Assembly (NCBI GenBank): GCA_948466735.1
Contig: CAOKBR010000004.1
Span: 1-50,334, forward strand
Direction of reading: 5' to 3'
Length of the DNA: 50,334 nucleotides
From: an uncultured Mycoplasmatota bacterium
Lineage (GTDB): Bacteria; Bacillota_I; Bacilli_A; RF39; UBA660
Shown: positions 33,915 to 48,879 of the stretch, piece by piece
Numbering within the stretch: position 1 is the stretch's first letter
Layout of the letters: the number at the start of each line of letters is the position of its first letter
Made by a program: the position numbers and the translations under genes
Notes under the pieces: model-generated
What the model was told of the DNA's origin: nothing
What the model saw: the letters and a program-made list of their open reading frames with translations, nothing else
Databases searched by the model: none

Positions 33915-33928
33915 AAAATAAAGGAGTA

Positions 33929-33957
33929 GAAGTATATCATATGATACTTCTTTTTTG
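33929..33957 (+). terminator. Terminator of priA
   Basis: GAAGTAT pairs with ATACTTC, 8-nt loop, T6. The same TACTTCTTTTT descending arm recurs behind serS at the other repeat copy. Confidence 0.8.
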
Positions 33958-34092
33958 TCTAAAAATGTCAATAAAAATTTTTTTTCTAAATCCGTGTAGA
34001 TAATTAAATTACTTTCCAAGGATATAAATGGTGGGAAAAATCCGTCAAAAATATTTGCTAAGGAGGAATTGATGATGAATAGAAAATAAATA
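33944..34092 (+). repeat. Dispersed element, copy 1
   Basis: Aligned by eye to the minus strand of 48721-48879. The core 33991-34070 matches 48814-48735 at 74 of 80 positions without a gap; flanking parts match with small gaps, including the descending arm of the terminator on the left and about 20 bases on the right. In one frame both copies read LSKDI(N/S)GGKNPSKIFAKEEL. In this copy an AAGGAGG followed by ATGATG leads straight into a TAA after five codons. The rest of the 316-bp gap (34093-34230) holds only AT-rich DNA and the promoter of the next gene. Confidence 0.8.
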
Positions 34093-47666: not shown

Positions 47667-48356
47667 ATGAAAGAGTCTAAATCAATGAATGATAAATATG
47701 TAGACGAATATATTACAGAAGGACAAGAAGAAAAAGAAAAAAATAGAATATGGTTATTATTAATGTTTTTTGTCATCATGTTAGTAGTAGCAACCATTGG
47801 TTGTAGTTACTCTATCTATATTTATACAAAAGAAGGAGGTAATAGCGATGTTGAAACAGGAACGGTATCTTTAACGTATACTGAAGGAAATACAGGTATT
47901 GCCTTAACAGATGCGAAACCAATGAACGATGAAGTAGGAAAAAATTTAATGGGAACCAATCAAAAATTTGATTTTACCATCCAAGCAACGCTATCTACTA
48001 AAATGAATGTCGATTATGAAATCTCAGCAGTAAAACAAAATGGGAATAGTTCACTACCTCAGTTAAGAGAAGATGAGGTAAAACTTTATTTAGAGCGGGC
48101 GATTGATCCAGATAATTCTTATCATGCGACACTTAATCCAACACATTTTACTCCTTTAGATAATCCATCTGATATAGGAACTCCTGGTGGCTCTATGATA
48201 TTAGAAAAAGGACAATTTACCGAAGAGGGAACTACGATTCATCGATATCGCTTAAGAATGTGGATTGATGAAAATGCTTATGTTGATTCTACACCAAAAC
48301 GTTTTGCTGTAAGAGTAAATGTATATGCTAAACATGTACCAAAAGAGGAAGTTTAA
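47667..48356 (+). CDS. Membrane-anchored beta-rich surface protein, unknown function
   Basis: 229 residues. A charged cytoplasmic head of about 27 residues, one membrane helix (about 28-52, WLLLMFFVIMLVVATIGCSY), then about 175 extracellular residues, beta-strand-like and rich in Thr/Asn/Asp (ETGTVSLTYTEGN, then QKFDFTIQATLST, RYRLRMWIDENAY). The GTVSLTYTEG...PM.DEVG order right after the helix is faintly like TasA/camelysin matrix proteins, but the family is not recognised with confidence. GGAGG lies five bases before ATG 47667. Single gene with its own terminator. Confidence 0.6.
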   Translation: MKESKSMNDKYVDEYITEGQEEKEKNRIWLLLMFFVIMLVVATIGCSYSIYIYTKEGGNSDVETGTVSLTYTEGNTGIALTDAKPMNDEVGKNLMGTNQKFDFTIQATLSTKMNVDYEISAVKQNGNSSLPQLREDEVKLYLERAIDPDNSYHATLNPTHFTPLDNPSDIGTPGGSMILEKGQFTEEGTTIHRYRLRMWIDENAYVDSTPKRFAVRVNVYAKHVPKEEV

Positions 48357-48367
48357 TCCTCTTTTTT
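48343..48367 (+). terminator. Rho-independent terminator of the surface protein gene
   Basis: AAGAGGA pairs with TCCTCTT, 7-nt loop spanning the stop codon, T run. Confidence 0.85.
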
Positions 48368-48385
48368 CGTTATCCATTGATTATA

Positions 48386-48478
48386 CTATCTTTTAAATCT
48401 TTTCATTAAGGCGTTTTGTGATTGTCTATTTTCTTCAAAACTTTTTCGATATACTAAGACATATTCATAACAAAGAGG
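48386..48478 (-). pseudogene. Orphan 30-codon open frame resembling a protein C-terminus
   Basis: On the minus strand a frame free of stops from 48478 down to TAG 48386-48388 reads YEYVLVYRKSFEENRQSQNA then LMKRFKR. It has no start codon of its own, follows directly on the BRO-N remnant in another frame, and looks like a genuine charged C-terminal helix. It may be the end of the BRO-N gene after a frameshift or of another deleted gene. Confidence 0.35.
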
Positions 48479-48712
48479 CTAACCACATTTTAAATGTTTC
48501 TGCTTTAGAACTTGGAACGGATTCAATTAATCTTAAAATTGCTTTCGTATCCAAGGTATCTGTTTCCATAAGTTTTCCATCTGATGCTTTCATTTTCAAT
48601 TGCACAATATTTTCGTGCAGTTGACTTTCTTCTAAAATCAATTTTCTTTTTAAGTCACTCCAGTATCCCAAATACTTCTAAATTATACTCCTTCAAATAA
48701 ATTAGTAATCAT
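48465..48712 (-). pseudogene. BRO-N family (phage antirepressor-like) gene remnant
   Basis: Read on the minus strand, ATG 48712 begins MITNLFEGV, then a stop, then FRSIWD, and, after a frame change, YWSDLKRKL, SQLHENIVQLKM and DTLDTKAILRLIESVPSSKA followed by FKMWLAS before stopping at 48465. The pieces are in the order of the N-terminal half of BRO-N/DinD-like proteins (LFE...RSIWD, then YWSDLK..L, QLKM.A.DGK, TDTLDTKGILRLIESVPS, FKMWLA). The stretch between RSIWD and YWSD that normally holds the VVDV strand is missing, so an internal deletion and frameshift have occurred. BRO-N proteins are typical of phages and integrative elements. Family call from remembered motifs. Confidence 0.6.
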
Positions 48713-48720
48713 ATCTAATT

Positions 48721-48879
48721 TGCTATTTATCCTTAATTCTTCCTTAGCAAATATTTTTGATGGATTTTTCCCACCACTTATATCCTTAGAAAGGAATTTA
48801 ATTATCTACACGAATTTAAGAAAAATAGTTAAAAAAATTTTTGTTGACACTTTTGGACAAAGAAAAAGAAGTATCATCA
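48721..48879 (-). repeat. Dispersed element, copy 2
   Basis: Minus-strand counterpart of 33944-34092; core 48735-48814. It lies directly between the serS terminator and the BRO-N remnant, and its possible reading frame (LSKDISGGKNPSKIFAKEEL) runs without a stop into the MITNLFEGV start of that remnant. Confidence 0.8.

What the first reader, a model, noticed from the sequence alone, without database searches (positions are those of the whole stretch)
33944..34092. A ~150-bp element occurs twice, 14.7 kb apart, in opposite orientation, each time directly behind a housekeeping gene
Seen by eye: 33991-34070 and the reverse complement of 48735-48814 agree at 74 of 80 positions, and the similarity continues into both flanks. 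It takes in the descending arm of the priA and serS terminators on one side and runs towards the BRO-N remnant on the other. Four of the six core mismatches fall on the third codon position of one frame (LSKDI.GGKNPSKIFAKEEL), hinting that it once coded. Both copies sit behind a strong terminator. This could be the leader or edge of a mobile BRO-N-bearing element that inserts at terminators, with copy 1 reduced to its leader, or a structured RNA.
Basis: seen in the sequence. Interest (0 to 1): 0.65.

Follow-up and report, generated by a model that had tools for sequence, protein, structure and literature searches.

The report
Promoter-leader of decayed BRO-N gene copies
The repeated 150 bases are the start (5' leader, ribosome-binding site and start codon) of an accessory DNA-binding-type gene that was copied to at least three places in this small bacterial genome, each right behind a housekeeping gene, and has since decayed; this is an ordinary footprint of gene gain and loss, with one weak hint of an RNA hairpin over the ribosome-binding site.

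Summary
The repeat is real (74/80 identical, as stated; BLAST E about 1e-43), but there are three copies in the genome, not two: behind priA (c1), serS (c2) and murI (c3, another contig). c3 explains it. The conserved block runs into AAGGAGG-8 nt-ATG and then, without a break, into a BRO-N (phage-antirepressor/DinD-like) gene. So the block is the 5' region of a BRO-N gene, not a separate element and not coding. The sister species holds the priA copy at the same place, still followed by a BRO-N remnant. All copies are pseudogenes. The leader was found in no other genome, phage or plasmid searched. Similarity starts where the terminator T-run ends, but I found no terminal repeats, no integrase and no orientation bias above background, so a terminator-targeting mobile element is not supported. 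The leader RNA can fold into a hairpin that hides the Shine-Dalgarno sequence; this is suggestive only (no two-sided covariation, four sequences). Other BRO-N leaders in the family are mostly unrelated and do not hide it as a class. Ordinary, low interest.

The parts
33915..33955 (+). intergenic end of priA with its terminator (stem GAAGTAT/ATACTTC plus T-run); marks the left edge of the repeat
   Evidence: fold -7.7 kcal/mol
33956..34085 (+). copy 1 (c1): leader of the BRO-N unit; from GTCTAAAA through the conserved GTGTAGATAATT block, a hairpin-forming segment, the AAGGAGG Shine-Dalgarno and ATG; only a few codons of the gene remain (MMNRK-stop)
   Evidence: orthologue with BRO-N remnant in G001
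34029..34047 (+). predicted inner hairpin TGGTGGG-AAAAA-TCCGTCA of the leader RNA (structure not proven; coordinates approximate by a base)
34060..34066 (+). Shine-Dalgarno AAGGAGG of the lost gene (coordinates approximate by a base or two)
48722..48859 (-). copy 2 (c2): same leader behind serS; Shine-Dalgarno mutated to AAGGAAG and the ATG to ATA
48471..48724 (-). decayed BRO-N coding remnant continuing from c2 (residues about 4-113 of a 284-aa homologue, with stops and frameshifts)
   Evidence: Bro-N profile hit at 48474-48677; tblastn

Best explanation
The 150-bp repeat is the 5' region (probable promoter, untranslated leader, Shine-Dalgarno and start codon) of a BRO-N-family accessory gene (phage antirepressor/DinD-like). 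Whole leader-plus-gene units were copied into at least three intergenic sites of this genome, behind priA, serS and murI, and all have decayed: c1 kept only the leader, c2 the leader plus an N-terminal remnant, c3 the leader plus a gene with a large internal deletion and frameshifts. The priA insertion predates the split from the sister species. The leader looks well conserved because the copies are paralogues and because it once held the expression signals. Shown: three copies, continuity into BRO-N, orthology at priA, decay, an insertion-free murI-hydrolase junction in a relative. Inferred: the promoter (conserved TGTAGATAAT) and spread by duplication or by a passing mobile element whose own recombination genes are gone. 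Least certain: that the leader RNA folds to hide the Shine-Dalgarno and dampen translation.
For: c3 runs from the leader through AAGGAGG-8 nt-ATG into MNSNLDTITNLFEGVEIRSIWDSEKE..., which matches BRO-N proteins from their first residues; c2 continues into a Bro-N profile match. The intact homologue L101 is Bro-N in Pfam and begins at the same point. In sister species G001 the leader sits between the same two genes, priA and the 34222 gene, with a BRO-N remnant after it. Leader sites group c1 with G001 and c2 with c3 (6 sites against 0 and 2). In G015 murI is followed directly by the same hydrolase with no BRO-N unit. Outside the genus the leader was not recovered: 291 family genomes gave only ribosome-site-plus-coding or AT-rich matches, genome contigs gave only G001 besides unrelated pattern hits, viral contigs only unrelated hits, phage and plasmid records nothing; an RNA model finds only these four copies.
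Against: Three of three copies start at the end of a terminator T-run, which simple random insertion would not require; CTTCTTTTT-type tails are common in the window (22 near-matches to ACTTCTTTTTT against 9.7 expected), which weakens this point but does not remove it. The right end of the unit could not be defined. No intact copy with this leader was found, so the promoter and the function of the leader are inferred.
Confidence: 0.85

Rival explanations
1. A small mobile element (BRO-N unit with defined ends) that inserts specifically at the T-run of transcription terminators, in the sense orientation.
For: All three copies and the G001 orthologue begin directly after the terminator T-run of a housekeeping gene and point the same way as that gene. 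In G001 another BRO-N pseudogene lies behind a topA-like gene and a strong terminator.
Against: No inverted repeat between left and right ends above shuffled sequence (13/60, 33/60 and 57/60 shuffles as good). No recombinase at the sites. BRO-N genes are co-directional with their upstream neighbour in 47/51 cases, against 41/43 downstream and 214/245 background pairs. In fewer than half of 53 BRO-N loci did a simple scan see a terminator-like hairpin after the upstream gene. No group II intron or other Rfam family matches in the window.
Confidence: 0.1
2. A cis-regulatory structured RNA: a leader hairpin that masks the Shine-Dalgarno and keeps the gene off, for example under read-through from the upstream gene. 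(Compatible with the best explanation; a claim about what the leader does.)
For: Predicted long hairpin pairing AATTCCTTT with GGAGGAATT. Shine-Dalgarno unpaired probability is 0.16 (c2) and 0.22 (c3), against 0.64 and 0.57 in shuffles (rank 1/60 and 3/60). Folding z -2.76 (c2) and -1.89 (c3). In the two inner helices all four substitutions keep pairing.
Against: No two-sided covariation and no better than shuffling partners; the outer stem has four unpaired cells; c1 and G001 do not fold better than shuffles. Across the other BRO-N leaders there is no general masking.
Confidence: 0.25
3. The block once encoded protein (LSKDI.GGKNPSKIFAKEEL), as an N-terminal extension or a separate peptide.
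For: The frame is open from a TAG stop onward and is in frame with the BRO-N start; 4 of 6 c1-c2 mismatches are at third positions.
Against: No ATG, GTG or TTG in frame after the TAG stop. A near-perfect Shine-Dalgarno and ATG lie at its 3' end, where homologous proteins start. Frame-shifted in G001. 4 of 6 is unremarkable.
Confidence: 0.03
4. Segmental duplication carrying the housekeeping gene ends and the leader together.
For: The shared ACTTCTTTTT tail on the left.
Against: No similarity upstream beyond the terminator tail (44-57% including the T-run); three unrelated upstream genes.
Confidence: 0.02

Closest known systems
BRO family N-terminal domain genes (Pfam PF02498, phage antirepressor-like)
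   Same: c2 and c3 continue into this gene family; an intact 284-aa relative scores 40.8 bits, over the 25.6 cut-off, and PHROG 15286 at E=5e-109
   Different: All copies with this leader are pseudogenes, and this leader sequence was found only in this genus
DinD (DNA damage-inducible protein D, NF008573)
   Same: The C-terminal part of relative L102 weakly matches it (E=4.4e-05, 23 bits against a cut-off of 242), and some family members have LexA-like boxes
   Different: Far below the equivalog cut-off; no LexA-like box found in the leader studied
Group IIC introns (insert behind terminators; from general knowledge)
   Same: Position directly behind terminator hairpins
   Different: No intron RNA match in Rfam, no reverse transcriptase in the inserts

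Membership tests
BRO-N accessory gene (PF02498) with its 5' leader | Leader continues into a BRO-N reading frame at a ribosome-binding site and start codon | tested here: met
   c3: AAGGAGG and ATG, then BRO-N residues 4-27 and 163-281; c2: residues 4-113; the Bro-N profile hit for c2 is below the curated cut-off at 20.1 bits
BRO-N accessory gene (PF02498) with its 5' leader | Copy 1 once carried the gene | tested here: met
   Orthologous priA copy in G001 has a decayed BRO-N-like stretch after the leader (read by eye, not by a profile hit)
Autonomous insertion element targeting terminators | Terminal inverted repeats or other defined ends | tested here: not met
   left edge defined, right edge not; a target duplication could not be tested without an exact empty site
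Autonomous insertion element targeting terminators | Encodes or sits beside a recombinase/transposase | tested here: not met
   None in the three inserts; some relatives of the BRO-N gene elsewhere follow serine recombinase-like genes
Structured cis-regulatory RNA | Compensatory base changes supporting the stems | tested here: inconclusive
   0 pairs with a two-sided change, a few one-sided changes that keep pairing, 4 cells unpaired in the outer stem; four sequences only
Structured cis-regulatory RNA | Match to a described RNA family | tested here: not met
   No Rfam match in the window; in L029 and L036 only one weak match, elsewhere in L036

The most novel reading that the evidence does not exclude
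A compact mobile gene unit that inserts precisely behind transcription terminators in sense orientation and protects the host from read-through expression by a leader hairpin that hides its own ribosome-binding site.
Probability: 0.07. Interest if true: 0.5.

Novelty: new member of a known kind. Interest (0 to 1): 0.2.

Why it matters
It shows how a puzzling repeat behind housekeeping genes in a reduced genome can be the fossil leader of an accessory gene family, and it warns against reading such repeats as new RNAs or elements before further copies and a sister genome are checked. If the terminator-edge placement were shown to be a rule, it would be of wider interest as a safe-harbour insertion strategy.

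Tried and rejected
Rfam: nothing in the window; one weak, unrelated match in L036. DNA pattern of the hairpin in viral and genome collections: apart from the sister genome, the hits have unrelated surroundings. Covariance model of the leader over 84 loci and both genus genomes: only the four known copies. Terminal inverted repeats in c3 looked plausible by eye (GTCT...AGAC) but are no better than shuffles. The promoter scan found no consensus sigma-70 promoter inside the leaders reading into the gene; the conserved TGTAGATAAT is only a -10-like guess. Shine-Dalgarno masking as a general trait of BRO-N leaders: rejected. Orientation bias: at background. Exact empty sites: the G001 serS contig ends about 40 bases after the gene and G001 murI has different downstream content; G015 gives an insertion-free murI-hydrolase junction, too divergent to fix the ends. 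A first LexA-box scan used a wrong spacing and was redone. Paper searches gave nothing on this leader or on BRO-N genes behind terminators; no paper was read in full.

Full report
Observation. A search of the whole genome (1.06 Mb, 58 contigs) with the region finds both copies and one more, on contig 25, at E=1.4e-42. The three copies lie behind priA (c1, window +), serS (c2, window -) and murI (c3, L029 -), genes identified by Pfam. Aligned from the last base of the terminator T-run, c1-c3 are 81-93% identical; upstream of that point identity falls to 44-57% even with the T-runs counted. The match is far beyond chance.

What it is. The third copy settles the nature of the block. In c3 the conserved sequence ends in TTAAGGAGGAATTAAGGATGAATAGC: a perfect Shine-Dalgarno, eight bases, then ATG, followed by MNSNLDTITNLFEGVEIRSIWDSEKE. 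BRO-N proteins of relatives start at the same residue, and an intact 284-aa relative matches Pfam Bro-N. c3 keeps residues 4-27 and 163-281 of that protein, with a large internal deletion and later frameshifts; c2 keeps residues 4-113, with its ATG changed to ATA and with stops. c1 stops after MMNRK. So the repeat is the 5' region of a BRO-N gene.

History. The sister species G001 (contig CASRZP010000004.1, uncultured Bacilli) has the same leader between the same two genes, priA and the homologue of the 34222 gene (92.5% identical), and after it a longer decayed stretch that still reads like the BRO-N N-terminus (by eye). Informative sites group c1 with G001 and c2 with c3 (6 against 0 and 2), and c1 and G001 share a shorter T-rich stretch. 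The priA insertion therefore predates the species split, and c1 has lost its gene. In G015, murI is followed directly by the same alpha/beta hydrolase, with no BRO-N unit, so c3 is an insertion in this lineage or a loss in the other; the former is simpler because no other murI neighbourhood looked at has it.

Distribution. Outside the genus the leader was not recovered: in 291 genomes of the family the other matches cover the ribosome-binding site plus the BRO-N coding start, or AT-rich runs. Pattern scans of genome and viral collections return only G001 and hits with unrelated surroundings, phage and plasmid records nothing, and a covariance model only the four copies. BRO-N genes themselves are common (30 of 60 relatives searched), with many unrelated leaders.

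Coding. The quoted peptide lies between a TAG stop and the ATG, has no ATG/GTG/TTG start, and is frame-shifted in G001. Four of six third-position mismatches is not remarkable. It is untranslated leader.

Mobile element at terminators. The left edge is shared and abuts the T-run in all copies. Against a dedicated mechanism: no inverted repeats above shuffles, no recombinase at the sites, orientation at background (47/51 upstream against 214/245 background pairs), and CTTCTTTTT tails are over-represented in this window anyway. Some BRO-N relatives elsewhere sit behind serine recombinase-like genes, so passage on such elements is a reasonable but unproven route.

RNA structure. The leader can fold so that AATTCCTTT pairs with GGAGGAATT over the Shine-Dalgarno, with two inner helices. 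In c2 and c3 the Shine-Dalgarno is less accessible than in nearly all shuffles, and the inner helices keep pairing through four one-sided changes, but no pair changes on both sides, the outer stem has four broken cells, and c1 and G001 do not fold unusually well. With four decaying sequences this stays a suggestion.

Verdict. It is an ordinary product of gain and decay of an accessory gene family.

Noticed in passing
upstream of BRO-N genes in L082, L092, L179, L189, L190, L102, L075, L086, L202, L187, L101: LexA-like boxes ([GA]AAC-N4-GTT[CT]), often overlapping a promoter-like sequence, in 11 of 59 BRO-N upstream regions against 0.95 expected (largest of 200 shuffle sets: 4); suggests that part of this DinD-like family is SOS-controlled.
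   Followed up: partly
L174 (G000 contig 24), L210, L214, L094, L186, L081: A different upstream module, up to about 200-270 bp, shared by BRO-N genes of several genera, with a motif like TGATTACGA..TTTAACCCC repeated in it; roughly 66-86% identical between genomes. Could be a recombination site or cassette boundary.
   Followed up: no
L101 1-2368, L102 1-2426, L178, L088: BRO-N genes directly downstream of serine recombinase-like genes in viral contigs and relatives (recognised by eye from the sequences), and so plausible cargo.
   Followed up: no
L074, L091, L168, L181: BRO-N gene overlapping or abutting a small helix-turn-helix-like gene (by eye), arranged like a two-gene operon.
   Followed up: no
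L171 (G001 contig 30): A BRO-N pseudogene directly behind a topA-like gene and a strong terminator (-14.5 kcal/mol), with an unrelated leader.
   Followed up: partly
L104 (G001, downstream of murI): The 3' side of murI in the sister species holds other accessory remnants (a DUF1016-like fragment and an HD-domain-like gene, recognised by eye), so murI's 3' side may be a recurrent insertion spot.
   Followed up: no
window 48356-48500: After the c2 BRO-N remnant, a short open stretch (YEYVLVYRKSFEENRQSQNALMKRFKR) ends before the convergent gene; origin not identified.
   Followed up: no
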